64,000 nt of DNA from Cherax quadricarinatus (taxonomy: Eukaryota; Arthropoda; Malacostraca; Decapoda; Parastacidae), in assembly GCF_038502225.1 (NCBI RefSeq), contig NC_091382.1, forward strand, positions 10,864,602-10,928,601. Direction: 5' to 3'. Position 1 is the first letter of the stretch, and each line of letters begins with the position of its first letter. Made by a program: the position numbers and the translations under genes. Shown here piece by piece: positions 17,411-60,568 of the stretch. Under the pieces are notes generated by a model. It was given only the letters and a program-made list of their open reading frames with translations. It had not been told where the DNA came from and did no database searches.

Positions 17411-17560
17411 TCTCACTTGGTATAGAAAAGGCCACGTAAGTGGAAATATAAACACATAAGCAGTATAATGTGATCCTTTATTAACAACGTTTCGCCCACA
17501 CAGTGGGCTTTATCAAGTCACAAACAGATCTACCTGGGTGATACATACGTATTTATAAGA
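17411..17560 (-). mobile_element. hammerhead-bearing (Penelope/retrozyme-like) element, fragment
   Basis: On the minus strand: CTTGATAAAGCCCACTGTG, GGGCGAAACGTTGTTAATAA, then AGGATCACATTATACTGC. This is the TTGATAA subfamily of the hammerhead-bearing repeat seen at 25599-26238. The adjacent 19-bp array begins where the interior of the element should continue. Confidence 0.6.
17482..17520 (-). ncRNA. hammerhead ribozyme-like motif (type I, TTGATAA core)
   Basis: Stem I 5' strand TGAC, box 1 TTGATAA, stem II GCCCAC-TGT-GTGGGC, box 2 plus minimal stem III GAAACGT, cleavage base T, stem I 3' strand GTTA. Stem I pairs with one G-U. Box 1 differs from canonical CTGATGA at the two bases that pair with each other in the known fold (C3-G8 becomes U-A). 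Activity is untested. Confidence 0.55.
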
Positions 17561-17561
17561 T

Positions 17562-19488
17562 GGAGTCAGGTGGAGAATGTTTGTTCAGGTGGAGAATGTT
17601 TGTTCAGGTGGAGAATGTTTGTTCAGGTGGAGAATGTTTGTTCAGGTGGAGAATGTTTGTTCAGGTGGAGAATGTTTGTTCAGGTGGAGAATGTTGGGTC
17701 AGGTGGAGAATGTTGGGTCAGGTGGAGAATGTTGGGTCAGGTGGAGAATGTTGGGTCAGGTGGAGAATGTTGGGTCAGGTGGAGAATGTTGGGTCAGGTG
17801 GAGAATGTTGGGTCAGGTGGAGAATGTTGGGTCAGGTGGAGAATGTTGGGTCAGGTGGAGAATGCTGGGTCAGGTGGAGAATGCTGGGTCAGGTGGAGAA
17901 TGCTGGGTCAGGTGGAGAATGCTGGGTCAGGTGGAGAATGTTGGGTCAGGTGGAGAATGCTGGGTCAGGTGGAGAATGTTGGGTCAGGTGGAGAATGTTG
18001 GGTCAGGTGGAGAATGCTGGGTCAGGTGGAGAATGTTGGGTCAGGTGGAGAATGCTGGGTCAGGTGGAGAATGTTGGGTCAGGTGGAGAATGCTGGGTCA
18101 GGTGGAGAATGTTGGGTCAGGTGGAGAATGTTGGGTCAGGTGGAGAATGCTGGGTCAGGTGGAGAATGCTGGGTCAGGTGGAGAATGTTGGGTCAGGTGG
18201 AGAATGTTGGGTCAGGTGGAGAATGCTGGGTCAGGTGGAGAATGCTGGGTCAGGTGGAGAATGTTGGGTCAGGTGGAGAATGTTGGGTCAGGTGTAGAAT
18301 GTTGGGTCAGATGGAGAATGTTGGGTCAGGTGTAGAATGTTGGGTCAGATGGAGAATGTTGGGTCAGGTGTAGAATGTTGGGTCAGGTGTAGAATGTTGG
18401 GTCAGGTGTAGAATGTTGGGTCAGATGGAGAATGTTGGGTCAGGTGTAGAATGTTGGGTCAGGTGTAGAATGTTGGGTCAGGTGTAGAATGTTGGGTCAG
18501 GTGGAGAATGTTGGGTCAGGTGGAGAATGTTGGGTCAGGTGGAGAATGCTGGGTCAGGTGGAGAATGTTGGGTCAGGTGGAGAATGTTGGGTCAGGTGGA
18601 GAATGTTGGGTCAGGTGGAGAATGCTGGGTCAGGTGGAGAATGCTGGGTCAGGTGGAGAATGTTGGGTCAGGTGGAGAATGCTGGGTCAGGTGGAGAATG
18701 TTGGGTCAGGTGGAGAATGTTGGGTCAGGTGTAGAATGTTGGGTCAGGTGTAGAATGTTGGGTCAGGTGTAGAATGTTGGGTCAGGTGTAGAATGTTGGG
18801 TCAGGTGTAGAATGTTGGGTCAGATGGAGAATGCTGGGTCAGGTGGAGAATGCTGGGTCAGGTGGAGAATGTTGGGTCAGGTGGAGAATGTTGGGTCAGG
18901 TGGAGAATGGTGGGTCAGGTGGAGAATGCTGGGTCAGGTGGAGAATGCTGGGTCAGGTGGAGAATGCTGGGTCAGGTGGAGAATGTTGGGTCAGGTGGAG
19001 AATGTTGGGTCAGGTGGAGAATGCTGGGTCAGGTGGAGAATGCTGGGTCAGGTGGAGAATGTTGGGTCAGGTGGAGAATGTTGGGTCAGGTGGAGAATGC
19101 TGGGTCAGGTGGAGAATGCTGGGTCAGGTGGAGAATGTTGGGTCAGGTGGAGAATGTTGGGTCAGGTGGAGAATGTTGGGTCAGGTGGAGAATGTTGGGT
19201 CAGGTGGAGAATGTTGGGTCAGGTGGAGAATGTTGGGTCATGTGGAGAATGTTGGGTCAGGTGGAGAATGCTGGGTCAGTTGGAGAATGCTGGGTCAGGT
19301 GGAGAATCCTGGGTCACGTGGAGAATGCTGGGTCAGGTGGAGAATGTTGGGTCAGGTGGAGAATGTTGGGTCAGGTGGAAAATGTTGGGTCAGGTGGAGA
19401 ATGCTGGGTCAGGTGGAGAATGTTGGGTCAGGTGGAGAATGTTGGGTCAGGTGGAGAATGTTGGGTCAGGTGGAGAATGTTGGTATTT
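17562..19488. repeat. 19-bp tandem array
   Basis: About 101 copies of GGTGGAGAATGTTGGGTCA, with TTT instead of TTGGG in the first six and blocks of GGTGTAGAATG units near 18290-18490 and 18720-18830. The left flank is a hammerhead element and the right flank begins GGTATTTTATACCATTT, the terminal sequence of the same element family. The array therefore appears to sit inside or between such elements. It is open in all three + frames for stretches, an artefact. Confidence 0.95.
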
Positions 19489-19737
19489 TATACCATTTAT
19501 TTCCAGGCTACTTATGTATAGATCAGGATATCTATGAAATGAAACGTTTTGTCACGAGTAGCGAAACGTTTCCCCATAATATCCTTGAGTACACACAAGT
19601 GGAACGTTTCCACAGTTCGCCGATATCACCGAGTCATTTAAACCAATTCGGTATATACTTCCATAAGGTAGCCTAGGAAAGTTATGAACCAGTACTTCGT
19701 TGGTGTCCAGTTGATGTTGACAACTTTTCCAGTGCAC
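19489..19737. mobile_element. remnant of hammerhead-family element
   Basis: Begins with GGTATTTTATACCATTTA, the conserved end of the family (compare 28575-28595). It contains GTAGCGAAACGTTTCCCC, which keeps box 2 and the ACGT core, but no box 1 is recognisable. Two further AACGTTTC-like segments lie nearby (about 19540 and 19605). A degraded copy; no gene is seen. Confidence 0.4.
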
Positions 19738-21434
19738 TACAATACCTCTAGAATACCGCAACAATACCTCTAGAATACCGCAACAATACCTCTAGAATAC
19801 CGCAACAATACCTCTAGAATACCGCAACAATACCTCTAGAATACCACAACAATATCTCTAGAATACCACAACAATACCTCTAGAATACCGCAACAATACC
19901 TCTAGAATACCGCAACAATACCTCTAGAATACCGCAACAATACCTCTACAATACCGCAACAATACCTCTACAATACCGCAACAATACCTCTACAATACCG
20001 CAACAATACCTCTAGAATACCGCAACAATACCTCGACAATACCGCAACAATACCTCGACAATACCGCAACAATACCTCGACAATACCGCAACAATACCTC
20101 GACAATACCGCAACAATACCTCGACAATACCGTAACAATACCTCGATAATACCCCAACAATACCTCGACAATACCGCAACAATACCTCGACAATACCGCA
20201 ACAATACCTCGACAATACCGCAACAATACCGCGACAATACCTCGACAATACCGCAACAATACCTCGACAATACCGCAACAATACCTCGACAATACCGCAA
20301 CAATACCTCGACAATACCGCAATACCGCAACAATACCGCAACAATACCTCGACAATACCGCAGCAATACCTCGACAATACCGCAGCAATACCTCGACAAT
20401 ACCGCAGCAATACCTCGACAATACCGCAACAATACCTCGACAATACCGCAACAATACCGCAACAATACCTCGACAATACCGCAACAATACCGCAACAATA
20501 CCTCGACAATACCTCGACAATACCGCAATACCGCAACAATACCGCAAAATACCTCGACAATACCGCAACAATACCTCGACAATACCGCAATACCGCAACA
20601 ATACCTCGACAATACCGCAACAATACCGCAACAATACCGCAACAATACCTCGACAATACCGCAGCAATACCTCGACAATACCGCAGCAATACCTCGACAA
20701 TACCGCAACAATACCTCGACAATACCGCAACAATACCGCAACAATACCTCGACAATACCGCAACAATACCGCAACAATACCTCGACAATACCGCAACAAT
20801 ACCGCAACAATACCGCAACAATACCTCGACAATACCGCAACAATACCTCGACAATACCGCAATACCGCAACAATACCGCAACAATACCTCGACAATACCG
20901 CAACAATACCGCAACAATACCGCAACAATAACTCGACAATACCGCAGCAATACCTCGACAATACCGCAGCAATACCTCGACAATACCGCAACAATACCGC
21001 AACAATACCGCAACAATACCGCAACAATACCTCGACAATACCGCAATACCGCAACAATACCTCGACAATACCCTAACAATACCTCGACAATACCGCAATA
21101 CCGCAACAATACCGCAACAATACCTCGACAATACCGCAACAATACCGCAATACCGCAACAATACCGCAATACCTCGACAATACCGCAACAATACCGCAAC
21201 AATACCTCGACAATACCTCGACAATACCGCAATACCGCAACAATACCTCGACAATACCCTAACAATACCTCGACAATACCGCAATACCGCAACAATACCG
21301 CAACAATACCTCGACAATACCGCAACAATACCTCGACAATACCGCAACAATACCTCGACAATACCGCAACAATACCTCGACAATACCGCAACAATACCTC
21401 GACAATACCGCAACAATACCGCAACAATACCGCT
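19738..21434. repeat. 11/22-bp tandem array
   Basis: Built from two related 11-mers, CAATACCGCAA and CAATACCTCGA, mostly alternating to give a 22-bp period. Shortened 8-bp TACCGCAA steps shift the phase. The first ~250 bp uses CAATACCTCTAGAATACC instead. The minus strand is open in overlapping frames (peptides of up to 503 residues of type RYCRGIVAVL), which I reject as coding. Confidence 0.95.
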
Positions 21435-21544
21435 GCCTCTCTCTGTGCGCCTCTTACTATCGCTATTTTGTTTTGTCATGTGGAATGCAAAATAGTTAAA
21501 ACAGGAGCGGATGGGACAATTATTTCCGTGACACGCACGATTTT

Positions 21545-21780
21545 AAACCAACGTCACTTAAGCTTGCATGTTACAGCTCTGGTTTATGAGGTTTTTAGAA
21601 CTGCGTCACAAGCTCTGGTTTATGAGGTTTTAAAAGTGTCACAAGCTCTGGTTCATAAGGTTTTAAAATAGCGTCACAAGCTCTGCATTAAGAGGTTTTA
21701 AAACAACGTCACAAGTTTTGGTTTAAGAGGTTTAAAAACAGCGTCACATATAGAAAAAGTTCTGATTTATGAGGTTTCGC
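21545..21780. repeat. short degenerate tandem repeat (about 36-38 bp unit)
   Basis: Five to six diverged copies of a unit containing GCGTCACAAGCTCTGGTTTA and GAGGTTTTAAAA. The copies differ by indels, so this is an old array. Confidence 0.7.
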
Positions 21781-21897
21781 TCAGGACTGAATATTTTAAA
21801 GCTTGTTAAAGTTTAGTTTTGAGCGAAACTTTGTTCATAACAGAAATTTGCTCTAAATTATTTGTTTTATACCACTTGTTGGTTTGTAGCCTCGGTC

Positions 21898-22058
21898 CCC
21901 TCAAGGAAGGTTCCTTGATGTTGGTGAGGGGCTCTTGATTTAGGGAATTGGATCTGTGCTCCAGTTCCCCGAATTAAGCCTGAATGCCTTCCACATCCCC
22001 CCCCCAGGCGCTGTATAATCCTCCGGGTTTAGCGTTTCCCCCTTGATTATAATAATAA
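21898..22058 (+). mobile_element. SINE 'A' full copy with 13-bp target duplication
   Basis: The perfect repeat TGTAGCCTCGGTC at 21885-21897 and 22059-22071 brackets a 161-bp element. It starts CCCTCAAGGAAGG and ends GGGTTTAGCGTTTCCCC, TTGATTATAATAATAA. It is inserted in a hammerhead-family element, which continues at 22072. Confidence 0.85.
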
Positions 22059-22166
22059 TGTAGCCTCGGTCACCCTGACTGATGGTTCACAAAGTCACTA
22101 TCAAGACTGATAGTCTGAACATAGAGTCGAGGGACTGATTACTCCTTACCCCTCTCTGCTTTGTAT

Positions 22167-22203
22167 TGGACTGATGAAGCCACTGTGTGACGAAACGTTT
22201 CCT
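22167..22203 (+). ncRNA. hammerhead ribozyme-like motif (type I)
   Basis: TGGA, CTGATGA, A, GCCAC-TGT-GTGAC, GAAACGTT, TCC. Box 1 and box 2 are canonical. Stem II has one C-A mismatch (GCCAC/GTGAC) and stem I only three pairs, so this copy may be weakened. It is followed by AATAAAG. Confidence 0.55.
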
Positions 22204-22472
22204 TAATAAAGATTCCCATATGTTGCATAAGTGTCTCAATCTTTATCTTGGGATCTTGATACAGGGAAGTCTTGCGTAACCTACATATATGACCTACTGA
22301 CACTAGTGGATTTGTCCAATGGTGACTCCGCTTCCTGCTTCTACTCACCTGACTGCAGTATATAAGCCACTTCTCCGAGCATATGCTCTACTTTTCTCAA
22401 GATTGATGGACTGAACACAGACTCCAGGCTGAGGAACTGATTACCTCATACTACTACTCATCTTCCACGACG

Positions 22473-22563
22473 GTCTGGAGTTTTGAGACTCTCTGACCGT
22501 GGGTTCAATCCCGGCCGGGGTATGGTTTGTTTGCAATCGTGTCATTACGATTTCGTGAGTCAA
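22473..22563 (+). mobile_element. tRNA-SINE 'V' (3' half)
   Basis: Contains TTTTGAGACTCTCTGACC, B-box-like GGGTTCAATCCCGGCCGG, then GGTATGGTTTGTTTGCAATC and GATTTCGTGAGTCA. Matches 63655-63752. Confidence 0.75.
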
Positions 22564-23361
22564 GTTAAGATTCCCAAATGATGTACAAGTGTCTCATTAT
22601 TCAACTTGTAATGGTTTAAAAACTGACATCACAAACTAAGTTATTTAAAATATTCAGCGAAGAATTTACTAACCAACTGAGGTCACCAATAGCCACATTT
22701 TTCTACCCAGACCTCAAAAAGAATAATTTGGTCTTTGAGGCACTGGTTATAAATTGTATGAGCATTATACTCTGTAATTCAGGCTACTGTACAATGTCAT
22801 TAATGTTTTAAACACTAGTGACCTGGATGATAATTCCGGCGCGCTGGGTTCCGTGACAACGGTTAGAAGACACCGATTGTTATCAGTACTAAGCGCTAAA
22901 CCCACAAAGGCCATACAGCTAGAAGACAGTGAAGGCAGAGAATATCAGTTATAGCAAATTACATTACATCATGGGTAATAATAAATATAATTATGGCACG
23001 GTAAAAAAATATACCAGAACACTGGTGCTGAGGAAGTCAGTCCCACAACCCAGTAATAGATTCAGATTAGATTTTGCCATCGAAGTGGCTAGTTTACTGT
23101 GCACCCCATCATATCCTTCCTGTGGACGATAGCACAAGAACATATGGATACACAAAAGACCTAGGAACTAGGCCTAAAAGGATTAACAGAAGTATATTTG
23201 GATTTATATCTACAATTCACTAATTTGTTAAAAGCAAATTAGGAAATTTACTTAGTATATCTGGCATCTTATTTTCATTAATAAGATGTCTTGACATGTC
23301 ACATAGGTTATTATACTGTATCTATATTCTTCTATAAGTGGACAATTAAGCACATAGTGTT

Positions 23362-23473
23362 GTGATGAATGGTTTGAAAAACCGACAAGTTGAAGATTGA
23401 GACACTTATGCAGCATATGCGAAACGTTTCCTGAATAAAGATTCCCATATGCTGCATAAGTGTCTCAATCTTC
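23362..23473. mobile_element. 112-bp hammerhead-family insertion with 14-bp target duplication
   Basis: AAGCACATAGTGTT is repeated at 23348-23361 and 23474-23487. The insert carries a perfect 30-bp inverted repeat (23390-23419 against 23446-23475, running slightly into the duplication). Its spacer holds CGAAACGTTTCCTGAATAAA. Box 1 of the ribozyme is absent, so it is a minimal, truncated member. Confidence 0.8.
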
Positions 23474-23565
23474 AAGCACATAGTGTTCAAGACAGTGACC
23501 AAATGCCCGACCACATAATTTGCATTTGGCTTGATCATCATCTGTGTGTCTCCCAAATTGCCAGA

Positions 23566-24222: not shown

Positions 24223-24589
24223 GTTCACATTGCAAGTTGCTCAATAAACATACTTATCTACGTTCATGTTATCATAGTGGGTTATAGATCTACTCAGGCT
24301 TCTAATTGCATTCCTATAACATTCATTTTCATTATTAACATCTCTCGTAATATTATTCCTAATGCTAGACACAGATACACCAGAGTTATATTCTACATTC
24401 TCCTTCAGGGTAATCATCTTGTCTAACATATCAACTTTACCATGATGGGAACAATAGACGATCTGTCGCCCAACAGAAACTTGATCACATTAACGGTGTC
24501 TCAGACTAAGGGATTGACCACAACCTATCAAGGCTGGGGAACTGAAGTTATCGTACTGCCTCTCCACTTTCTCCAATTTCTTAAGGTTT

Positions 24590-24652: not shown

Positions 24653-24882
<230 letters not shown>

Positions 24883-25665
24883 GATAATACAGTAAAAATC
24901 CCTGATTTTCGTTCTGCAGATTATAATGGACTTAGGGAACATCTGTCTAATCTTGATTGGGGTTATCTAGCTAATGATTTTATTGACGATAATCATACTT
25001 ATGAATATGAAGGGATCTGCTTTTATGATTGTTTTCTTAATAATGTACACAGTGCCCAGAGTATATACATTCCCCAGAGAGAATTTAGGTCTAATAATAA
25101 CGATCCCAAATGGGTTAACAGGAGGCTAAAGCATCTATTAGGGGAGAAAAGGGGAATTTATAGGCGCATCAGAAGAGGAGAGGTTAACCTTACTGACCAA
25201 TATGTTCAGCTTAAAAGAGAAGTAAAAAGGGCGATTAGAAAGGCTAAACGTGACTATGAAATTAGAGTTGCTAATGAATCAAAGACTAATCCAAAGGGGT
25301 TCTTTCAAGTGTATAGGACGAAGGTGAAGGAAAAAGTAGGACCTCTGAAATCTGGGAATGGACAGCTGACGGATAATGAACTGGAAATGTGTTCCTTATT
25401 TAATGACTATTTTTTGTCAGTTTTTACACAGGAAGATGTAAATGAGATTCCAGTAATTAACAATTATTTAGTTCCTGATGAATTTAAGTTAACTAATATT
25501 ACTGTCACGAGGGACATGGTTATTAAACAGATAGACAAACTGAAACAAAATAAGTCCCCGGGACCCGATGAGTTGTTTTCAAGGGTACTTAAGGAATGTG
25601 TACGAAAGGTATATAATACCGACAAGATGAGAGTAAGACACATGTGCAACATCTGGGTATCTTTA

Positions 25666-25704
25666 TTGTAGACGTTTCGCCATCCAGTGGCTTTATCAAT
25701 ACAA
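25666..25704 (-). ncRNA. hammerhead ribozyme-like motif (TTGATAA core)
   Basis: Mirror copy of the motif at 25747-25785: stem I TTGTA/TACAA, stem II GCCA-CTGGA-TGGC, GAAACGTC with cleavage expected after the C. Confidence 0.55.
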
Positions 25705-25746
25705 ATTCCAGGACATAACTTGAAGACAGTAGTTATGTCCTGGAAT

Positions 25747-25785
25747 TTGTATTGATAAAGCCACTGGATGGCGAAACGTCTACAA
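25747..25785 (+). ncRNA. hammerhead ribozyme-like motif (TTGATAA core)
   Basis: TTGTA, TTGATAA, A, GCCACTGGATGGC, GAAACGTC, TACAA. Stem I is five perfect pairs and stem II four pairs with a five-base loop. Stem III is only AC/GT; because ACGT is self-complementary, two copies could share it. It is followed directly by TAAAG (TACAATAAAG). Confidence 0.6.
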
Positions 25786-26164
25786 TAAAGATACCCAGAT
25801 GTTGCACTTGTGTCTTACTCTCATCTTGTCGGTATTATATACCTTTCGTACACAACTTGTCAGACACTGCAACATCATGGAATCTTAATTCTGAGGACAT
25901 GAACATAACCTTCATAACTACGACAACTACTACTACAACTAACCCATCTCTTTGGGAAGGACCTACTTCCACTGGGGAATCCCGCCCACCAGTGAATTTG
26001 CCCTCGTCTGCTTCACCTGACGTTACTATATAAGCGCCAGGATTCTTTCTTCTGCTTCAGAATCTCCACGACTATGGTGCTGTTCGCACCTACTCCTAGG
26101 TTGAGGGACTGATTACCTCATCTTCTGTACATAGTTCTACTGTCTTCAAGTTATGTCCTGGAAT

Positions 26165-26203
26165 TTGTATTGATAAAGCCACTGGATGGCGAAACGTCTA
26201 CAA
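26165..26203 (+). ncRNA. hammerhead ribozyme-like motif (TTGATAA core)
   Basis: Same sequence as 25747-25785, 418 bp downstream. Cleavage at both would release a 418-nt monomer. Confidence 0.6.
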
Positions 26204-27790
26204 TAAAGATACCCAGATGTTGCACATGTGTCTTACTCGTACTTAAGGAATGCAAGATGGAGCTTAGTCAGCCATTAACGAGTGTATTCAATGCGTCCAT
26301 CCTTACCAGTGTTGTGCCAGAGTTGTGGAAGATGGCTAATGTGGTTCCTATATTCAAATCAGGGGATAAGTCCACTCCTTCAAATTACCGTCCAATAAGC
26401 CTGACATCTATAGTGGGCAAGTTATTAGAATCAATTATAGCTGACATTATCAGAAGTCACCTTGAAGAGCATAACTTAATAAATGAATCTCAGCATGGAT
26501 TCACGAGAGGTCGTTCCTGCCTGACAAACTTACTGACGTTCTTCAATAGAACATTTGAGGCAGTTGACAGTGATAAGGAATATGATATTGTTTATTTGGA
26601 TTTCAGTAAAGCCTTCGACAGAGTACCTCACAAGAGACTCTTAAGAAAAGTGGCAGCTCATGGTATAGGAGGTAAAGTTCTAGCATGGATTGAGGCATGG
26701 CTTACCAATAGAAAGCAGAGAGTTACCATTAATGGAGTGAAATCTGAATGGGGATTAGTCACTAGTGGCGTTCCACAAGGATCAGTTTTAGGGCCTCTCC
26801 TATTCATAATTTACATTAATGACCTTGATGAAGGGATTACTAGTGACATGAGTAAGTTTGCTGATGATACAAAGATAGGCCGTATAATTCACTCTGAGGA
26901 GGATATCAATGAACTCCAGGACGATTTAAACAAATTAATGTCTTGGTCTGAAAAATGGCAGATGAAGTTTAATGTGGATAAGTGTAAGGTACTTGCCCTT
27001 GGTAATGAAAATAACCCTCGAAGCTATAATCTAGGTGAAGTAGAGCTTGGTCATACAGAATGTGAAAAAGACTTGGGAGTCATGGTAAGCAGAAATCTAA
27101 AGCCAAGACAGCAGTGCCTTAGTGTGCGCAACAAGGCCAACAGATTACTTGGATTTATCTCAAGAAGTATAAGTAACAGAAGTCCAAAAGTTATTTTACA
27201 GCTCTATACATCACTAGTGAGGCCTCATTTAGATTATGCTGCTCAGTTTTGGTCCCCTTACTACAGGATGGACATAGACTCATTAGAGAACATGCAGAGA
27301 AGAATGACTAAAATGATTTACTGTGTAAGGAACCTCCCGTATGAAGATAGACTTAAAGCCTTAAATCTCCACTCTCTGGAGAGGCGTAGAATGAGGGGAG
27401 ATATCATTGAAGTGTATAAGTGGATGACGGGCATAAACAAGGGAGACATTAATAAAGTACTGAGGGTGTCGAACCAGGTAAGAACCAGGAATAATGGATT
27501 TAAGTTGGATAAATTTAGATTTAGAAAGGACATAGGTAAGTACTGGTTTTCTAACAGAGTTGTAGATGCGTGGAACAGTCTTCCCAATGGGGTGATAGAG
27601 GCTAGGACCTTGGGTAGCTTTAAGAAGAGGCTGGACAAATATATGAGTGGGAGGGGCTGGGTTTGATTGGTGTCAAGGGGTACGGGAGTTATTTCTTGAG
27701 TAGCTTTAGGTAGATGTCGTTTTGATAAGGACCTGCCTCGTATGGGCCAGTAGGCCTTCTGCAGTGTTCCTACATTCTTATGTTCTTATA

Positions 27791-28177: not shown

Positions 28178-28188
28178 ATATATATATA

Positions 28189-28250
<62 letters not shown>
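28178..28250. repeat. (AT)n microsatellite
   Basis: AT dinucleotides with one TTT interruption at each end, between the TIR element and a hammerhead element. Confidence 0.95.
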
Positions 28251-28257: not shown

Positions 28258-28470
28258 GAAGTTCTGTTCCAAAGCTGAGGGACTGACAACCTCAAATCCA
28301 CGACTTCAAGGGTGATGGACTGATTACATCGTCTTCACGTATCTACTGCTCCTGCCTACTTTCTGTACTCGACTGAAGAAGCCTACTGTGTAGGCGAAAC
28401 GTTTCGGAATAAAGTTACCTAAATGTTCGCTGTGTGTCTTACCTACCAACCAGGTTCTTTACGGTCACCT
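28258..28470 (+). mobile_element. hammerhead-bearing element (CTGAAGA subfamily)
   Basis: AGCTGAGGGACTGACAACCT, a second TGATGGACTGATTACAT, the ribozyme, then AATAAAGTTACCTAAATG and GTGTGTCTTACCT. The same order as at 60400-60570 defines a second subfamily. Confidence 0.7.
28369..28407 (+). ncRNA. hammerhead ribozyme-like motif (best stem II)
   Basis: TCGA, CTGAAGA, A, GCCTAC-TGT-GTAGGC, GAAACGTT, TCGG. Box 1 fits the CUGANGA consensus with A at the free position. Stem II is six perfect pairs. Stem I is TCGA/TCGG (four pairs including U-G), different in sequence from TGGA/TCCA at 47405-47441, that is, compensated. Followed by AATAAAG. Confidence 0.7.
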
Positions 28471-28493
28471 GACTGGCCTACAAGACCATCCTT

Positions 28494-28648
28494 GAACATT
28501 AAAATGGTATAAAATACCGACAGATTGTTAGGTAAGACACATATGCAACAGTTAGGTATCTTTATTTCGAAACGGTCGGTATTTTATACCATTTTAATGT
28601 TCGTTTCGAAATAAAGATACCTAACTGTTGCATATGTGTCTTACCTAA
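28494..28648. mobile_element. hammerhead-family insertion of interlocked inverted repeats, 13-bp target duplication
   Basis: CAAGACCATCCTT is repeated at 28481-28493 and 28649-28661. The insert is almost entirely two perfect inverted repeats in the order A-B-A'-B': A 28494-28521 with A' 28575-28602 (28 bp) and B 28526-28573 with B' 28603-28650 (48 bp). B contains GTATCTTTATTTCGAAAC and A contains GGTATAAAATACCGAC, both terminal pieces of the hammerhead family. Confidence 0.85.
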
Positions 28649-28782
28649 CAAGACCATCCTTCCTGACCAGGAGGGAAGCTGCTGCACGCCCACCATTGTC
28701 AACGTTTACTACCATGACCACGCCCCATGGGGTAATAATTTCCGAAAGGGGGCCTTACTGGCATGCCCTTTCCAATAGTTAA

Positions 28783-47005: not shown

Positions 47006-47404
47006 TAGATAGTTTTGAGAATAGTGAGGCCTTGAAGGATGCACAACAGCTCTGATTTATTGAGGCTAGAGTACTGATGAACCGACCAGCCATGTTCTGG
47101 ACTACCTTATACCTGCAGGTGATAACCTGCGTTCACTTTCCGTGCATGCACAAAATAGGGTGAAGATCTCGTACAGGATAGGCATCAATGAATAATGGGT
47201 GACTCGTACTCAACTGCCCAAATTCCTATGGCTTGTGTCATGCTACATGCCAACCGATAGTTTAACAACACACGGAATACAGACTGGTAGACTGACATGC
47301 CACTGACATGATAACATGCAAAATACGTTAATGTGGATAAATGATTCAGAGAACCGACAAGTTGATAAATTAGACACATGTCCAACACTTGGGTATCTTT
47401 ATTG

Positions 47405-47441
47405 TGGAAACGTTTCGCCACACAGTGGCTTCATCAGTCCA
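47405..47441 (-). ncRNA. hammerhead ribozyme-like motif (canonical core)
   Basis: TGGA, CTGATGA, A, GCCAC-TGT-GTGGC, GAAACGTT, TCCA. Every conserved core base is present. Stem I is four perfect pairs, stem II five perfect pairs, and stem III is the minimal AC/GT, with cleavage expected after the second T of GTT. This is the best canonical copy in the window. Confidence 0.7.
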
Positions 47442-47794
47442 TACAAAAGAGAATGTTGAAGAACAGGAGTTTGAGGTAATCAGTCCCTCAGCCTTGAGGG
47501 ACTCCACCAATCCTGAAAAGACAACATTTGTGCAAAGAAGTTCTTGTATACTGTAGGCAGCTAAGGTGAAGCAGTCGTAGGTGGTATCACATTTGATAAA
47601 TCCTACTTCCACATTCGGATTTGTCAAATGTGACACCACCTACGACTGCTGCACCTCACCTGACTACAGTATATAAGCTACTTCTTCGCACATATGCTGT
47701 ATTCTTTTCCAGACTGATGGACTGATTACATCAACTCATGGCTGAGGGAATGATTACCTCAAACTACTCCTGTTTTTCACCATTCTCCTTTGTA

Positions 47795-47831
47795 TGGACT
47801 GATGAAGCCACTGTGTGGCAAAAGATTTCCT
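47795..47831 (+). pseudogene. inactivated hammerhead motif
   Basis: TGGACTGATGAAGCCACTG is intact but GAAACGTT has become AAAAGATT, destroying box 2 and stem III. Confidence 0.65.
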
Positions 47832-47881
47832 CGATAAAGATACCCAAGTGTAGCATATGTGTCTCATTTATCAAAATAAGT

Positions 47882-52408: not shown

Positions 52409-52419
52409 AGAATAAAAAC

Positions 52420-53775: not shown

Positions 53776-54044
53776 TTCTCTTGCTATATTGTGATAGCGT
53801 TTTACTTTTCTTTATAAAAGAAATAACAACAATAGTCAAAATAAAGAAGTAACAACAATAGTCAAAATGGCGTTGGTGACAGTATCGCAAGTCGGTTATA
53901 CTGGAAACAAGAGAAGTACGCCAAAATGTGTGTATCAGTCAGGAGATGAAGAGGTTTTATGTGACTGATTCGGATGATTGTTATTTTGATAAGTGTGTGT
54001 GTGATAAACTCAGATCTCATGATTGCAATAAATGATGCTCTAGA

Positions 54045-56786
54045 TAGCTCTTCCAGTACCGTGTTTAGTGCTGTTCCAGTACCATGTTTAGCGCTGTTCC
54101 AGTACCATGTTTAACACTGTTCCAGTACCATGTTTAACACTGTTCCAGTACCATGTTTAACACTGTTCCAGTACCATGTTTAACACTGTTCCAGTACCAT
54201 GTTTAACACTGTTCCAGTACCATGTTTAACACTGTTCCAGTACCATGTTTAACACTGTTCCAGTACCATGTTTCACACTGTTCCAGTACCATGTTTAACA
54301 CTGTTCCAGTACCATGTTTAACATTGTTCCAGTACCATGTTTAACACTGTTCCAGTCCATGTTTAACATTGTTCCAGTACCATGTTTAACATTGTTCCAG
54401 TACCATGTTTAACACTGTTCCAGTACCATGTTTGACACTGTTCCAGTACCATCTCTAACACTGTTCCAGTACCATGTTTAACACTGTTCCAGCACCATGT
54501 TTAACATTGTTCCAGTACCATGTTTAACACTGTTCCAGCACCATGTTTAACACTGTTCCAGTACCATGTTTAACACTGTTCCAGTACCATCTCCAACACT
54601 GTTCCAGTACCATATTTAACACTGTTCCAGTACCATCTCTAACACTGTTCCAGTACCATGTTTAACACTGTTCCAGTACCATGTTTAACACTGTTCCAGT
54701 ACCATGTTTAACATTGTTCCAGCACCATGTTTAACATTGTTCCAGTACCATGTTTAACACTGTTCCAGTACCATGTTTAACACTGTTCCAGTACCATGTT
54801 TAACATTGTTCCAGTACCATGTATAACACTGTTCCAGTACCATGTTTAACACTGTTCCAGTACCATGTTTAACATTGTTCCAGCACCATGTTTAACACTG
54901 TTCCAGTACCATGTTTAATACTGTTCCAGTACCATGTTTAACACTATTCCAGTACTATGTTTAACACTGTTCCAGTACCATGTTTAACACTGTTCCAGTA
55001 CCATGTTTAACACTATTCCAGTACCATGTTTAATACTGTTCCCGTACCATGTTTACACTCTTCCAGTACCATGTTTAACACTGTTCCAGTACCATATTTA
55101 ACACTGTTCCAGTACCATATTTAACATTGTTCCAGTACCATGTTTAACACTATTCCAGTACTATGTTTAACACTGTTCCAGTACCATGTTTAACACTGTT
55201 CCAGTACCATGTTTAACACTGTTCCAGTACCTTATTTAACACTGTTCCAGTACCATGTTATCACTGTTCCAGTACCATGTTTAACACTGTTCCAGTACCA
55301 TGTTTAACATTGTTCCAATACCATGTTTAACATTGTTCCAGTACCATGTTTAACATTGTTCCAGTACCATCTCTAACTGTTCCAGTACCATGTTTAACAC
55401 TGTTCCAGTACCATGTTTAACACTGTTCCAGTACCATGTTTAACACTGTTCCAGTACCATGTTTAACACTGTTCCAGTACCATGTTTAACACTGTTCCAG
55501 TACCATGTTTAACACTGTTCCAGTACCATGTTTAACATTGTTCCAGTACCATCTCTAACTGTTCCAGTACCATGTTTAACACTGTTCCAGTACCATGTTT
55601 AACACTGTTCCAGTACCATGTTTAACACTGTTCCAGTACCATGTTTAACACTGTTCCAGTACAATGTTTAACACTGTTCCAGTACCATGTTTAACATTGT
55701 TCCAGTACCATATTTAACACTGTTCCAGTACCATGTTTAACATTGTTCCAGTACCATATTTAACACTGTTCCAGTACAATGTTTAACACTGCTCCAGTAC
55801 CATGTTTAACACTGTTCCAGTACCATGTTTAACACTGTTCCAGTACCATGTTTAACATTGTTCCAATACCATGTTTAACATTGTTCCAGTACCATGTTTA
55901 ACATTGTTCCAGTACCATGTTTAACATTGTTCCAGTACCATGTTTAACACTGTTCCAGTACGATGTTTAACACAGTTCCAGTACCATGTTTAACATTGTT
56001 CCAGTACCATGTTTAACACTGTTCCAGTACCATGTTTAACACTGTTCCAGTACCATGTTTAACACTGTTCCAGTACCATGTTTAACACTGTTCCAGTACC
56101 ATGTTTAACACTGTTCCAGTACCATGTTTAACACTGTTCCAGTACCATGTTTAACACTGTTCCAGTACCATGTTTAACACTGTTCCAGTACCATGTTTAA
56201 CACTGTTCCAGTACCATGTTTAACACTGTTCCAGTACCATGTTTAACACTGTTCCAGTACCATGTTTAACACTGTTCCAGTACCATCTCTAACACTGTTC
56301 CAGTACCATCTCTAACACTGTTCCAGTACCTTATTTAACACTGTTCCAGTACCATGTTTAACACTGTTCCAGTACCATGTTTAACATTGTTCCAATACCA
56401 TGTTTAACATTGTTCCAGTACCATGTTTAACATTGTTCCAATACCATGTTTAACATTGTTCCAGTACCATGTTTAACATTGTTCCAGTACCATGTTTAAC
56501 ATTGTTCCAGTACCATGTTTAACATTGTTCCAGTACGATGTTTAACACTGTTCCAGTACGATGTTTAACACAGTTCCAGTACCATGTTTAACACTGTTCC
56601 AGTACCATGTTTAACACTGTTCCAGTACCATATTTAACACTGTTCCACTACCATATTTAACACTGTTCCAGTACCATCTCTAACACTGTTCCAGTACCTT
56701 GTTTAACACTGTTCTAGTACCTTGTTTAACACTGTTCCAGTACGATATTTAACACTGTTCCAGTATCATATTTAACACTGTTCCAG
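54045..56786. repeat. 23-bp tandem array
   Basis: About 118 copies of TTCCAGTACCATGTTTAACA plus CTG, moderately diverged (ATTG for ACTG, CTCTAAC, ATATTT) and with small deletions. It ends at the 5' edge of a LINE RT. Confidence 0.95.
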
Positions 56787-58118
56787 TAAGAAATTGGATA
56801 GGAAGTGACAAACAATGTAAGAGGTTTCTGTGGAAATTACAGTTGGTGTCCCACAGGGAAGTGTCCTTGGCCCTCTTCTCTTTCTCCTATACATAAATGA
56901 CCTTCCAAATGCTTCGCAATTACTCAAACCCACACTATTTGCAGATGACACTACATACGTCTTCTCTCACCCGAGCCCAGTCACACTAGCCAATACTGTA
57001 AATACCGAATTACAGAAAATATCTACCTGGATGAGGACTAACAAACTTACACTAAACATTGACAAAACCTACTTCATTCAGTTTGGTAACAGAGCTACAG
57101 ATGTCCCTCTTAACATAATGATAAACGGATCACCTATCACAAAGCTAACAGAGGGAAAATTCTTAGGAATCCACCTTGATAATAGACTCAAATTTCATAC
57201 ACATATACAACAAATTTCTAAGAAAATTTCCAAGACTGTAGGCATACTATCGAAGATACGGTACTATGTTCCACAGTCAGCCCTCCTGGCCCTATATCAC
57301 TCTCTTATTTACCCCTATCTCACCTATGGAATTTGTGCATGGGGCTCAACAACAGTTAACCATCTCAGACCACTAATTACCCAACAAAAGGCTGCAGTTA
57401 GAATGATAACAAATTCTCACTACAGGCAGCACACTCCACCAATATTCAATACACTAAACCTACTCACCATACAAAACATCCATACTTATTACTGCACCTA
57501 TTACATACATAGAACACTTAACTCTGATATTAACCCTCCCCTCAAACATCTCCTTGCCAACCTCAACAGAACACATGACCATAACACAAGGCACAGATCA
57601 CTCTTTGATGTTCCTCGTGTTCATCTCACACTATGCAAAAACTCAATGCACATAAAAGGCCCTAAAATCTGGAATTCATTACCTGTAAATATAAAAGAAA
57701 CACTTCCTGTTTATAAATTCAAGTCTCTACTCAAAGATCACTTACTCACCCAAAACCAAATAAATACTGAATAACTGAACCTTATAAATTGTATATCTTA
57801 AATGTTTCTCACAATTATATCACATAAATGTTAAACCTAAAACCCAATCTAACTTTATTATTTTTTAAATACACTACCTAACAGAATCCTTCATATGACC
57901 TGTCTTTGTAATACTCACTTGTGCTTTATAGTAATCTGTTTACATTAATGTTTTATCACTGACTTCATCATTGCTTAATTAATCTTAAGTTAATTTTAAG
58001 CCAGCCCGTAATGCTATGCATAGTATAAGTGGCTTTGGCATACTGCTCTTATCTGTATTTTTTTGTACCTCTGTATGTGTGCACAAATTTATAATAAATA
58101 AATAAAATAAATAAAAAT
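56787..58118 (+). mobile_element. 5'-truncated LINE with AATAAATA tail
   Basis: RT frame (56830-57774), a 340-bp 3' untranslated part with GTGGCTTTGGCATACTGCTC, and a terminal AATAAATAAATAAAATAAAT tail at about 58090-58118. The first 40 bp are decayed (two stops before the frame). Confidence 0.85.
56830..57774 (+). CDS. reverse transcriptase C-terminal half, LINE
   Basis: 314 codons starting inside the palm: GVPQGSVLGPLLFLLYINDL (residues 6-25), PTLFADDTTYVFS (motif C, about residue 40), WMRTNKLTLNIDKTYFIQF, KFLGIHLDNRLKFHTHI, LYHSLIYPYLTYGICAWGST (thumb), then GPKIWNSLPVNIKE and FKSLLKDHLL at the C-terminus. Motif A and the fingers are missing, so it is a truncated fragment although the remaining frame is open. 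The methionine given is only the first in the frame. Clade uncertain; it differs clearly from both CR1 subfamilies here. Confidence 0.8.
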   Translation: MEITVGVPQGSVLGPLLFLLYINDLPNASQLLKPTLFADDTTYVFSHPSPVTLANTVNTELQKISTWMRTNKLTLNIDKTYFIQFGNRATDVPLNIMINGSPITKLTEGKFLGIHLDNRLKFHTHIQQISKKISKTVGILSKIRYYVPQSALLALYHSLIYPYLTYGICAWGSTTVNHLRPLITQQKAAVRMITNSHYRQHTPPIFNTLNLLTIQNIHTYYCTYYIHRTLNSDINPPLKHLLANLNRTHDHNTRHRSLFDVPRVHLTLCKNSMHIKGPKIWNSLPVNIKETLPVYKFKSLLKDHLLTQNQINTE

Positions 58119-58124
58119 GTGTAG

Positions 58125-58255
58125 ATTATAATCAAGGTTAGGTAAGGTTTGTCAGGAAACAGGATAAGTGTTTCCTGATGCGGGTCTTTAGTCATATGAT
58201 GATCCACAGCTGGAGCTTTTGGCCATGTGACCGAGGCTTTCCACTGGCTTACCAC
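58125..58255 (+). repeat. dispersed repeat 'D'
   Basis: GGTTTGTCAGGAAACAGGAT, GTGTTTCCTGATGCGGGTCT, TAGTCATATGATGATCC and GGAGCTTTTGGCCATGTGAC. Collinear with 60126-60290; a weaker relative lies at 63130-63180. The AGGAAAC/GTTTCCT segment is a short inverted repeat. 58260-58638 shows nothing I recognise. Confidence 0.7.
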
Positions 58256-58638
58256 TCCACCTCTTTAAAAATCATGAACACCTTTGAAAGAATACTCAAC
58301 TACCACAAACTGCTAAATTCTTAGCAATACAGTTGCTAAACGAAGTCTATTGCCAAACCACCCGTCAAGCTGAACTGTTATCACGGCATTGAATCTTTCC
58401 TCTCACCTGGCCTCTCCTTTCTCCTGACCTACTCTCGTTCCTGTCTATACAGTCCCCTTGCCTGGGATATATTAACGAGCACTGTCTGGCAGTCACAGCT
58501 GGTGATCAGACCTAAAGTTACCCCGGCGCTCGAGTTGCCAATCAAAATGGTTTGTTGGGAACAGATTACTACTATCGAGACCACCGATCTGAAGGCACCT
58601 CTGACAACCCTCACTGGTAGAATTACCGTCAAAATGTT

Positions 58639-58807
58639 AGGTGAATCTACACAGATGCAACTAATGTGACATAGTTATTGAGGCAACCTATCGTTCTCCA
58701 GGAGCCTTATCAAGCCGTTACCAACGGCTTGACAAAGCTCCTGAAAAAAGAAACGTTGCCACAGTCAAGTGTCACATTAAATGTTGCGTCTGTGTACGTT
58801 TACCTAA
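58639..58807. mobile_element. decayed inverted pair related to hammerhead elements
   Basis: The left arm GTTAGGTGAATCTACACAGA... and the right arm ...GTCTGTGTACGTTTACCTAAC are inverted. The centre is CAAGCCGTTACCAACGGCTTG-like. Each arm has CTTGA(C/T)AA(A/G)GCTCCTG and a GAAACGTTGCC or degraded equivalent, which looks like the TTGATAA subfamily. Ribozyme stems are no longer convincing. Confidence 0.45.
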
Positions 58808-58815
58808 CACAACCT

Positions 58816-59008
58816 CGGCTGTAGCAACTGCTACACCTAGCTGTAGCAACTGCTACACCTAGCTGTAGCAACTGCTACACCTAGCTGTAGCAACTGCTAC
58901 ACCTAGCTGTAGCAACTGCTACACCTAGCTGTAGCAACTGCTACACCTAGCTGTAGCAACTGCTACACCTAGCTGTAGCAACTGCTACAACTAGCTGTAG
59001 CAGCTACT
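58816..59008. repeat. 22-bp tandem array of hairpins
   Basis: About nine copies of a 22-bp unit; each contains TGTAGCAACTGCTACA, a 7-bp perfect inverted repeat around AC, separated by CCTAGC. Confidence 0.9.
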
Positions 59009-59240
59009 ACACCACCACTAGTGACCAACCCAATACTGATGCAACATCTCTCTCTCTCCCTGAGAGCCGTGAGAGTGAGTTTATAACCGGATTGGTCCTG
59101 AGAGAAAACGAAGATTGCAACTACCTATTAAAATTCATGATCAAACCTGGAACCCAGTGCGTGAGTCGACCATCTCTTACATACAATAAAAACATTAAAG
59201 GTTCGCTACTTTAAAACAAATATGATTTGACCAGGCCACA

Positions 59241-59545
59241 CGGTGCCACGTGGCCTGGTGGCTAAACCTCTCGCTTCACACAGCGAGGGTTTGGGTTCGA
59301 TTCCCAGAGAGGGTAGAAACATAGGGCGTGCTTCTTTACACCGGTTGTCTATGTTCACCCATCAGTAAAACAGGTACCTGGGTGTTAGTGGACTGGTGTG
59401 GGTCGCATCCTGGGACAAAACTAACCTAATTTGCGGGAAATGCTCAGCGTAACAAAGGACTTTCTATACAGAAGTATGTCACTGATGTCAGCTATGGTCT
59501 GTATACCTTGTACATGTACTTATAGTAAACATATTACTGTTGTAG
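59241..59545 (+). mobile_element. tRNA-derived SINE, second subfamily
   Basis: Head: TGGCCTGGTGGCTAAACC (A box), an anticodon arm CTCGC-TTCACACA-GCGAG (five perfect pairs, CAC), and GGGTTCGATTCCC (B box). Body CAGGTACCTGGGTGTTAGTG. A 3' part different from the 11096 copy: GCTCAGCGTAACAAAGGAC and TATGTCACTGATGTCAGC. Confidence 0.85.
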
Positions 59546-59774
59546 GAGTAGTTTCAATATAAAGTGTAATAATTTATGTATTTAGCTTATACGCACCACT
59601 CCAGGTGATTACATACCTGAAATAACTAACATAGCCTAGCAATTTACCATGGATACAAGGAGCATCACTGCATCCACTCGTTGATTGGTAAATGGGGTTT
59701 AAAACTGCTTAATAACATATATATCGTAAATTTATATAATGTATTTATACTTTTTTTTTGTCAGTGAATAACTC

Positions 59775-59865
59775 ACACTGACGACTCACTCGCCATGGGT
59801 TCTAACCCCCACCCGTTCCGTGGTTTGTTTGCAATCGTGGGATTACGATTTCGTGAGTCATGAAC
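59775..59865 (+). mobile_element. tRNA-SINE 'V' fragment
   Basis: ATGGGTTCTAACCCCCACCC, CCGTTCCGTGGTTTGTTTGC and TTACGATTTCGTGAGTCA. Neighbouring 59546-59774 and 59866-60125 are AT-rich with no other recognised feature. Confidence 0.6.
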
Positions 59866-60125
59866 TATGGCACAAAACAAATATATAAAAAAGTAATTTA
59901 TATAATCTTAAGACCTCATTAAGATCATTTGTCTTCTAAATATTGAGTTACCTTTAGCCTATGTGAATTTTGCACGTGTTGATGTTTAATATTCTTGTCA
60001 AGTCTCGACCTCTCGCTGGTGAATGGCAGAGTTAATGAGATAGGCTTCTCGCCTCACAGCTTGACATTCTTGTTATAATAACCTGCCTGCTTAGCTTTCA
60101 ACATGCTTCGTGAACCACTAGTCCT

Positions 60126-60290
60126 GTTAAGGTTAAGTAAGATTCGTCAGGAAACAGGACGAGTGTTTCCTGACGCGGGTCTTAGTCATATGATAACCCG
60201 TCACTGGAGCTTTTGGCCATCTGATCGAAGCCTTCCAATGGCTTACCAGTCCACAGCTTTAAAAATCAAGGCTATAATTATAACCTTGCT
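60126..60290 (+). repeat. dispersed repeat 'D'
   Basis: Collinear with 58125-58255: TCGTCAGGAAACAGGACGAG, TTTCCTGACGCGGGTCTTAG and GGAGCTTTTGGCCATCTGAT. Confidence 0.7.
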
Positions 60291-60309
60291 TATTAGTATT
60301 TAAATCTAT

Positions 60310-60568
60310 GTTGAAAACAGTATAAAATACCGACAAGTTGATGAGCAAGACGTGCAGATGTTGAAACGTTTCGCCTACACAGTAGGCTGAGTTCTCTACC
60401 AGGCTGAGGGACTGACCACCTCAATACTATTTCTCCAAGGTTGATGGACTGATTACATCATCTTTTCACTATTACACCTACTACCTTTGTATGTGACTGA
60501 AGAAGTCTATGTAAGCAAAGCGTCTCAACAATAAAGATACCCAATTGTTGCACATGTGTCTTACTCAG
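60310..60568. mobile_element. decayed head-to-head hammerhead elements (CTGAAGA subfamily)
   Basis: The left part, on minus, ends with CTTGTCGGTATTTTATACTG and keeps CCTACTGTGTAGGCGAAACG (stem II and box 2) but has CTCA instead of box 1. The right part, on +, has CTGAAGA at 60497 but AAAGCGTC instead of GAAACGTC. It is followed by AATAAAGATACCCAATTG and CACATGTGTCTTACTC. Confidence 0.65.

What the first reader, a model, noticed from the sequence alone, without database searches (positions are those of the whole stretch)
17482..60527. A dispersed family carries minimal hammerhead ribozyme motifs with covarying stem I
Seven copies (17482-17520 -, 22167-22203 +, 25666-25704 -, 25747-25785 +, 26165-26203 +, 28369-28407 +, 47405-47441 -) share box 1, a stem II hairpin and GAAACGT(C/T). 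The bases just before box 1 and just after the cleavage base pair in each copy, yet differ between copies: TGGA/TCCA, TCGA/TCGG, TTGTA/TACAA, TGAC/GTTA. Independent sequences that keep pairing are strong evidence for a conserved RNA fold. Stem III is only AC/GT. ACGT is self-complementary, so a dimeric fold is likely, as known for hammerheads in Penelope-like elements. Three further copies are visibly broken (47795, 60494 and the 60370 region).
Basis: partly seen in the sequence, partly recalled or inferred. Interest (0 to 1): 0.9.

Follow-up and report, generated by a model that had tools for sequence, protein, structure and literature searches.

The report
Crayfish mini-Penelope with hammerhead ribozymes
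The repeats are short, protein-less relatives of Penelope retrotransposons in what looks like a crayfish genome, carrying a tiny self-cutting RNA motif (a hammerhead ribozyme) beside a poly(A) signal; the general kind is known, but this compact form and its swapped core base pair are unusual.

Summary
All seven copies carry a minimal type I hammerhead. They are five lineages (three copies share one insertion). Stem I, stem II and the tertiary 3-8 core pair (C-G or U-A) covary; simulated windows gave no match with both stems. Rfam finds nothing.

The carriers are ORF-less Penelope-like elements (PLEs). Five insertions show PLE anatomy: an inverted head copy with a 30-35 nt 'tail' and a target-site duplication (exactly 14 bp in three, decayed or doubtful in two). 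One lies in a LINE reverse transcriptase; joining its flanks restores the frame. The fullest units have a TATA-like site, covarying leader hairpins, the hammerhead, AATAAA starting 4-6 nt after the cleavage site, a GT-rich stretch and a hairpin between two inferred reverse-transcription start points. By inspection, eleven of twelve cDNA arms cross the cleavage site, so cleavage did not set their 5' ends.

Minimal hammerheads in PLEs are known. The ORF-less form, natural U3-A8 pair and poly(A)-signal link are the unusual parts; two key papers were not held. Named protein relatives are from the crayfish Cherax quadricarinatus. Catalysis and dimerisation are untested; the window's own genome could not be searched.

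The parts
25599..26238 (+). Insertion I, an ORF-less PLE in a LINE reverse-transcriptase ORF: inverted head copy (25599 to about 25730), direct copy with hammerhead 25747, 418-bp unit, second direct hammerhead 26165
   Evidence: exact 14-bp TSD; joined flanks restore the RT frame
25585..25598 (.). Left target-site duplication of insertion I (right copy 26239-26252)
28494..28647 (+). Insertion II: inverted and direct 3' pieces, both arms starting 4 nt upstream of the cleavage position
   Evidence: exact 14-bp TSD 28480-28493 / 28648-28661; 10-14 bp if the 4-nt microhomology is counted to the element
23362..23473 (+). Insertion III: inverted tail piece plus direct piece starting in stem II
   Evidence: exact 14-bp TSD 23348-23361 / 23474-23487; 12-14 bp if a 2-nt microhomology is counted to the element
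47333..47871 (+). Insertion IV: head-to-head copies 47405(-) and 47795(+) with arms of about 240 bp
   Evidence: 79.6% inverted repeat; decayed TSD, 11 of 14 matching (5 of 268 controls reached 11 or more)
60310..60566 (+). Insertion V: head-to-head copies 60365(-) and 60492(+), approximate ends
   Evidence: TSD doubtful: only AGTATT (6 bp) shared at 60295 / 60567
47405..47441 (-). Hammerhead, C3-G8 core, perfect stems I and II
   Evidence: 60.1 bits, in model
28369..28407 (+). Hammerhead, C3-G8 core
   Evidence: 61.2 bits, in model
22167..22203 (+). Hammerhead, C3-G8 core, one mismatch in stem II
   Evidence: 56.4 bits, in model
17482..17520 (-). Hammerhead, U3-A8 core, separate subfamily
   Evidence: 59.4 bits, in model
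25747..25785 (+). Hammerhead, U3-A8 core, direct copy 1 of insertion I
   Evidence: held-out hit 36.6 bits
26165..26203 (+). Hammerhead, U3-A8 core, direct copy 2 of insertion I
   Evidence: held-out hit 36.6 bits
25666..25704 (-). Hammerhead, U3-A8 core, inverted head copy of insertion I
   Evidence: held-out hit 36.6 bits
47795..47831 (+). Degenerate hammerhead (GAAAC lost)
   Evidence: held-out hit 43.2 bits
60492..60527 (+). Degenerate hammerhead
   Evidence: 14.2 bits, E 0.37, within background
60365..60388 (-). Partial hammerhead: stem II and 3' core only
   Evidence: model positions 12-35, 33.7 bits
58725..58761 (+). Degenerate hammerhead, U3-A8, stem II lost, third subfamily
   Evidence: 19.0 bits, E 0.018
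58681..58717 (-). Inverted partner of 58725, U3-A8, degenerate
   Evidence: 14.0 bits, E 0.4, within background
26202..26236 (+). AATAAA and GT-rich stretch directly after the hammerhead (example)
   Evidence: AATAAA starts 4-6 nt after cleavage in 8 of 11 hammerhead rows, three of the eight being from insertion I
25831..25843 (+). Hairpin B (GGTAT-TAT-ATACC), which lies between the two inferred RT start points
   Evidence: 5 bp in 5 of 5 insertions, 4 of 5 pairs in a sixth piece at 61 kb; pair 4 A-T or T-A, pair 5 T-A or C-G
25599..25630 (-). Tail: 32-nt extension on the inverted copy
   Evidence: tails of 32, 35, 30, 32 and 33 nt in insertions I, II, III, IV and V
26102..26120 (+). Hairpin A (TGAGG-GACTGATTA-CCTCA) in the leader; other copies at 22430, 24648(-), 28276, 28313, 47490(-), 47715, 47743, 60405, 60442
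   Evidence: 10 sites in or beside element pieces with 5 bp; GAGG/CCTC versus GATG/CATC; the copy at 22129 does not form it
26027..26034 (+). TATATAAG core-promoter-like site; also at 22359 and 47670, with a variant at 47552(-)
   Evidence: not seen upstream of the 17482, 28369 or 60492 copies, and one further match at 63761 lies outside the elements

Best explanation
These are copies of a non-autonomous (ORF-less) Penelope-like retroelement. The repeat unit is essentially the pseudo-LTR: a TATA-type promoter, leader hairpins, a minimal type I hammerhead, a poly(A) signal with a GU-rich element, and a hairpin at which reverse transcription starts. Proposed cycle (inferred): tandem units are transcribed by Pol II; a reverse transcriptase supplied in trans by an autonomous PLE binds the RNA, cuts both target strands about 14 bp apart and primes from both ends at two fixed points flanking hairpin B, giving head-to-head cDNAs with a 30-35 nt tail on one side. 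Two hammerheads in one transcript (stem III is only AC/GU, so the ACGU of one can pair with the ACGU of the other) would cleave just before AAUAAA, trimming off the leader and the poly(A) signal to release unit RNAs. Shown by sequence: the anatomy, the TSDs, the covarying stems, the clustered end points and the absence of poly(A) tails at the right ends. Inferred: catalysis, dimerisation, trans-mobilisation.
For: Three insertions with exact 14-bp TSDs; random zone pairs shared 14 bp or more in 2 of 1360 trials. The joined flanks of insertion I read through as one LINE RT frame. Tails of 30-35 nt in 5 of 5 insertions, each holding a 5-bp hairpin with two-sided changes between insertions. These match published PLE features: direct pLTRs plus an inverted pLTR, an optional 31-bp tail and 8-10 bp TSDs (absent in some copies) in a rotifer (PMC3846280, passages), and a 30-40 bp tail lying between two internal RT start sites, with both strands cut and extended, in the Anolis PLE (PMC11167929, main text). 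Covariation. Covariance search. Direct tandem hammerheads 418 bp apart. The same body is found in two Cherax quadricarinatus predicted proteins, and I read the leader hairpin and the hammerhead in one of them.
Against: No PLE reverse transcriptase or GIY-YIG domain was found in the window; ten ORFs were scanned with Pfam and gave only RVT_1 or nothing, and a six-frame scan for recalled PLE signatures found none, so the mobilising enzyme is unseen; most ORFs of the window were not scanned with Pfam. Rfam's hammerhead models do not match. Eleven of twelve cDNA arms cross the cleavage site, so the templates of these insertions were not cut there, or were religated or circular. The 47-kb TSD is decayed and the 60-kb one doubtful. 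No activity data.
Confidence: 0.85

Rival explanations
1. They are metazoan retrozymes: small tandem repeats with type I hammerheads that spread through circular RNAs.
For: Unit size (418 bp in insertion I; 358 bp between the tail signals at 22205 and 22563, the second of them degenerate and beside a probable SINE) is near the 170-400 nt range; direct tandem hammerheads; crustaceans are said to have retrozyme-like repeats (PMC7229834, passages). Arms that cross the cleavage site would also fit a religated circular template.
Against: The hammerheads are the minimal stem-III-less PLE type, the fullest units carry promoter-like sites, and the insertions have PLE inverted heads and tails, whereas retrozymes are described as lacking promoters and, in animals, LTRs (PMC7761336, passages).
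Confidence: 0.1
2. The hammerheads are decayed passengers with no function in these elements; the conserved letters reflect recent shared descent only.
For: Several copies are broken (47795, 60492, 58725, 58681); templates of inserted copies were intact across the site; in the Anolis PLE, hammerhead mutants did not affect insertion in vitro (PMC11167929).
Against: Two-sided changes that keep pairing in stem I, stem II and the 3-8 pair across five intact and two degenerate lineages imply selection on the fold before the copies were inserted.
Confidence: 0.2
3. Chance resemblance in a repeat family to the hammerhead consensus.
For: Rfam gives no match.
Against: 0 of 150 simulated windows gave a core with both stems; held-out copies score 36.6 bits against 32.3 for the best of 24 preselected chance cores, a small margin; covariation.
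Confidence: 0.02

Closest known systems
Minimal type I hammerheads of Penelope-like elements (Cervera & de la Pena 2014; Lunse et al. 2017; neither read, seen in reference lists; summarised in PMC7761336)
   Same: Type I order, stem III reduced to AC/GU, no loop-loop contacts evident, dispersed and in pLTRs, proposed to act as dimers
   Different: Here the cleavage site lies 3-5 nt before an AATAAA in most copies, and three lineages carry U3-A8 instead of C3-G8. Both primary papers were not held, so these may be recorded there
Poseidon PAc element of Anolis (PMC11167929)
   Same: Two internal RT start points with a 30-40 nt tail between them, a stem loop at the start region, both target strands used, hammerhead upstream
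   Different: PAc is autonomous and its ORF starts at hammerhead stem II; here there is no ORF and a poly(A) signal lies between hammerhead and start points
Penelope elements of Adineta vaga (PMC3846280)
   Same: Inverted pLTR at the head, 31-bp tail, TSD, TATA in the pLTR; pLTR-flanked inserts without the PLE ORF were seen
   Different: 8-10 bp TSDs (none in some copies) and captured non-PLE cargo there; 14-bp TSDs and a short dedicated unit here
Metazoan retrozymes (PMC7229834, abstract and passages)
   Same: Small tandem units with type I hammerheads
   Different: Retrozymes have canonical hammerheads with tertiary contacts and are said to lack promoters

Membership tests
Hammerhead ribozyme (type I) | Core CUGANGA ... 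GAAA ... NUH | tested here: met
   Five lineages intact; two of these five (and the degenerate 58-kb pair) have U3-A8 in place of C3-G8
Hammerhead ribozyme (type I) | Stems I and II kept by compensatory change | tested here: met
Hammerhead ribozyme (type I) | Stem III | tested here: inconclusive
   Only A-C/G-U with no loop; complete only as an ACGU-ACGU dimer, by inspection
Hammerhead ribozyme (type I) | Match to the Rfam models | tested here: not met
   those models may not suit this stem-III-less form (my inference, no positive control)
Hammerhead ribozyme (type I) | Self-cleavage | not testable with these tools
   needs RNA assays
Penelope-like element | RT plus GIY-YIG ORF | tested here: not met
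   Insertions of 112-640 bp leave no room for it; ten window ORFs gave RVT_1 in five and nothing in five; signature scan empty. Hence filed as a non-autonomous derivative
Penelope-like element | Direct tandem pLTRs and an inverted partial pLTR at the head | tested here: met
   Inverted head in 5 insertions, direct tandem in insertion I
Penelope-like element | 30-40 bp tail on one end | tested here: met
   30, 32, 32, 33 and 35 nt
Penelope-like element | Target-site duplication | tested here: met
   three exact 14 bp, one decayed, one doubtful
Penelope-like element | Hammerhead in the pLTR | tested here: met
Metazoan retrozyme | Canonical hammerhead with loop contacts, no promoter or LTR | tested here: not met
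   Minimal hammerhead, TATA-like sites in the fullest units, pLTR-type insertion
Metazoan retrozyme | Circular RNA intermediate | not testable with these tools
   needs RNA

The most novel reading that the evidence does not exclude
The pLTR is a self-contained RNA switch. Folding of stem I in dimeric hammerheads covers or cuts off the adjoining AAUAAA, so one transcript becomes either a polyadenylated mRNA or tail-less unit-length retrotransposition RNA; and because the unit also seems to carry a 3' splice site (two Cherax gene models join it at the same residue), it can be captured as a terminal exon, which would give host mRNAs a ribozyme-gated poly(A) site. The naturally compensated U3-A8 core would be a second, evolved solution to the catalytic core.
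Probability: 0.12. Interest if true: 0.75.

Novelty: new variant of a known kind. Interest (0 to 1): 0.42.

Why it matters
What minimal hammerheads do in Penelope elements is described as a mystery (PMC7761336, passage). An ORF-less family that still moved must hold every cis-acting signal the enzyme needs, so its conserved blocks (leader hairpins, hammerhead, poly(A) signal, start-site hairpin) are a ready list for dissection. The natural U3-A8 variant lets the 3-8 pair be tested without design, and the arms that cross the cleavage site argue that cleavage does not set the 5' ends of new insertions.

Tried and rejected
Rfam at gathering and permissive thresholds: no hammerhead. Searching viral and prokaryote collections for relatives: one and 23 bare-core matches, and no match to the tail pattern in viral contigs; by inspection none of the 24 has the AATAAAG tail. 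From its ORFs I read the viral contig as a phage; I took all 24 as chance and used them as controls. Idea that 5' truncations mark the ribozyme cut: both arms of insertion II start 4 nt upstream of the cut, but the other arms start elsewhere, so I dropped it. Pfam for a PLE enzyme: only RVT_1, whose catalytic motifs I read as LINE-like. The short AUG frame within CUGAUGA as the start of a PLE ORF: it stops at or near the TAA of AATAAA (by inspection). Single-sequence and dimer energy folds did not settle the dimer question: they favoured other or full-length duplex pairings. MAFFT alignments A1 and A2 misplaced some columns, and one row of A2 (the 58675 piece) was cut at wrong coordinates, so the nine-row pair table was aligned by hand. 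In that table 58725 came from a scan that required a C-G or U-A pair at 3-8, so it is not independent evidence for that pair; its partner at 58681 was read by eye. The three 25-26 kb copies were counted once, and the partial copy 60365(-) was left out.
Full report
CHECK OF THE OBSERVATION. The seven motifs are at the stated coordinates. All have box 1, a hairpin and GAAACGT(T/C). A descriptor scan found 8 cores in the window (the seven copies plus 58729), 6 of them with both stems; 150 simulated 64-kb windows gave 8 bare cores and none with stems. A looser listing of GAAACG-like places, read by eye, gave a degenerate inverted pair at 58681(-)/58725(+), and a mismatch scan for the 3' signal gave several truncated 3' pieces. 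Rfam release 15 gave no hammerhead at gathering or at E<=10, nor for a 76-base piece around 47405; I infer that its models do not suit hammerheads without a stem III loop, but I ran no positive control.

COVARIATION. In nine hand-aligned rows (five intact lineages, four degenerate rows), stem I positions 1-3 pair in 9 of 9 rows each, position 4 in 4 of 9, stem II positions 1-4 in 8, 6, 8 and 8 of 9, and the 3-8 core pair in 9 of 9 (five C-G, four U-A). In total 70 of 81 cells pair, with 17 two-sided changes; 0 of 20,000 shuffles reached either, 0 of 20,000 for the five intact rows alone, and 1 of 20,000 for a third set of five rows. The shuffles ignore relatedness: rows from one insertion are not independent. 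U-A occurs in three lineages (17 kb, 25 kb, 58 kb) and C-G in four (22, 28, 47, 60 kb). On the four copies of alignment A3, five of eleven pairs have a two-sided change; 2 of 500 shuffles matched on four measures and 20 of 500 on the fifth (further pair types); slid structures paired 28-53% against 95%. A model from those four (R1) found the held-out 25-26 kb copies at 36.6 bits, 47795 at 43.2, 60365(-) at 33.7, 58725 at 19.0, and 60493 and 58681 near 14 bits, the last two within background (filters off). The 24 control contigs had been preselected for a bare core (viral; from 257 billion bases of prokaryote contigs); 23 matches were reported, the best 32.3 bits (default filters). So the held-out margin is real but not large on score alone; context settles it.

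WHAT CARRIES THEM. Insertion I (25599-26238) splits the reverse-transcriptase ORF of a LINE (RVT_1). It is flanked by GTACTTAAGGAATG on both sides, and joining the flanks gives one open RT frame. Inside are an inverted copy, a direct copy and, 418 bp on, a second direct copy. Insertions III (23362-23473) and II (28494-28647) also have exact 14-bp duplications; up to 2 bp in III and 4 bp in II could be microhomology with the element. Random pairs of zones shared 14 bp or more in 2 of 1360 trials (control zones were 55 and 46 bases, about the size of the real ones). Insertion IV (47 kb) has a decayed duplication, 11 of 14 matching, which 5 of 268 controls reached. For insertion V (60 kb) I place the ends at AGTATT (6 bp) at 60295/60567; the best 14-base match in those zones, 10 of 14, lies elsewhere and 50 of 268 controls reached that, so its duplication is doubtful. 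In all five the inverted copy ends 30-35 nt further out than the direct copy (32, 35, 30, 32, 33 nt; the ends of IV and V are my reading). That extension always holds hairpin B, GGTNT-NNN-ANACC, with 5 of 5 bp in 5 of 5 insertions and two-sided changes at pairs 4 and 5; a sixth piece, at 61 kb, keeps 4 of 5 pairs in that register, and the 22.6-kb piece was not tested.

This is the anatomy published for Penelope-like elements: direct pLTRs, an inverted pLTR at the head, an optional 31-bp tail and short TSDs, absent in some copies (PMC3846280, passages read), with the tail corresponding to the stretch between two internal reverse-transcription start sites in the Anolis element, where both target strands are cut and extended (PMC11167929, main text read). 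By this test the carriers are PLE insertions. They lack the defining ORF: Pfam on ten window ORFs gave RVT_1 in five and nothing in five (other ORFs were not scanned), and a scan for recalled PLE signatures found none. I therefore call them non-autonomous derivatives.

ANATOMY OF THE UNIT, 5' to 3', in the fullest copies. A TATATAAG site (26027, 22359, 47670; variant at 47552 on the minus strand; one unrelated match at 63761); none was seen for the 17482, 28369 and 60492 copies. One or two leader hairpins A with loop GACTGATTA; ten sites in or beside element pieces form 5 bp, seven as GAGG/CCTC-type (one with a G-U) and three as GATG/CATC, a two-sided change, while the copy at 22129 does not form the stem (that scan listed 17 of 143 loop-like sites with at least 3 bp, 12%, background 5.5%). 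The hammerhead. AATAAA starting 4-6 nt after the cleavage position in 8 of 11 hammerhead rows (three of the eight from insertion I), lost in 47795, 58725 and 58681 (55 AATAAA on both strands of the window). A GT-rich stretch. Then hairpin B. In the 17-kb and 25-kb lineages stem I overlaps the first A's of AATAAA (by inspection).

MECHANISM. Shown: PLE-type insertion, clustered end points, no A-tail at the right ends, conserved fold. Inferred: Pol II transcription, trans-mobilisation, cleavage, dimerisation through ACGU. A result against the simplest role: of twelve cDNA arms (five insertions plus the 58-kb pair) eleven include the cleavage phosphate; only the minus arm of insertion III starts downstream of it, and both arms of insertion II start 4 nt upstream (sequences, by inspection). 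The templates were therefore uncut there, or religated or circular. This agrees with the Anolis work, where hammerhead mutants did not change insertion in vitro, unprocessed RNA was the main substrate and the hammerhead cut only with protein present (PMC11167929). The same paper reports that C3G/G8C double mutants partly restore cleavage; the U3-A8 pair here is a natural two-sided change at the same place.

HOST. The unit's reading frame matched two predicted proteins of the crayfish Cherax quadricarinatus (67% and 71% identity over 54 and 45 residues). By my reading P0002 continues through AEGLIT (hairpin A) and IDKATGWRNVYNKD (hammerhead), the latter string also in a window frame, and P0003, from an unnamed source, carries AEGLIT and the tail. 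Both Cherax models join the unit at DTATSWNL, which suggests a shared 3' splice site. The window is thus probably from a crayfish or near relative.

PRINT. Minimal hammerheads in PLEs and dispersed in animal genomes are known (PMC7761336, PMC7229834, PMC6155905, passages). Searches for hammerhead with Penelope, also with polyadenylation, with crustacea and with dimer, hairpin and tail, for Penelope with pLTR and inverted or non-autonomous, for Cherax with Penelope, for hammerhead with the 3-8 pair, and for hammerhead ribozyme with crayfish gave no title or abstract that describes this family (listings only, beyond the papers named). A decapod repeat survey reports Penelope elements at a mean of 2.3% in Astacidea and its main text does not contain the word hammerhead (PMC10454600, passages). 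The two primary papers on PLE hammerheads were not held, so novelty of the U3-A8 pair and the AATAAA link is unproven.

Noticed in passing
61437-61695: A 3' PLE piece runs into six more head-to-tail copies of a 34-bp unit made of its own tail region (five identical, the last with two differences). The length is within the 30-35 nt between the two RT start points, so repeated re-copying by a telomerase-related reverse transcriptase is conceivable; slippage or unequal crossing-over is the plain alternative.
   Followed up: partly
25853-26030: The unit seems to supply a 3' splice site and coding exon to two predicted Cherax quadricarinatus genes, both joining at DTATSWNL.
   Followed up: partly
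26098-26125 and similar: The leader hairpin A loop GACTGATTA resembles hammerhead box 1 with its preceding stem (GACTGATGA); the hammerhead model gives background-level hits at two such places, 28316 and 22407, so it may derive from a collapsed hammerhead copy.
   Followed up: no
22454-22562: In the direct-tandem unit at 22.3-22.6 kb the hammerhead is replaced by a stretch with a tRNA-like B box (GGTTCAATCCCGGC), probably a SINE.
   Followed up: no
19482-19610: A hairpin-B-like GGTATTTTATACC at the end of the 17565-19483 minisatellite, followed by GAAACGTTT stretches and a GTGGAACGTTTCCAC palindrome; possibly remains of another PLE.
   Followed up: no
17309-17411, 24653-24880, 28178-28249: Element pieces lie beside or within about 70 bp of TA and AG microsatellites (24648 minus, 28255, 17482), which may reflect AT-rich or simple-repeat targeting.
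   Followed up: no
whole window: Very many tandem repeats (65 rows, some overlapping) and five ORFs with a reverse-transcriptase domain that I read as LINE-type.
   Followed up: no
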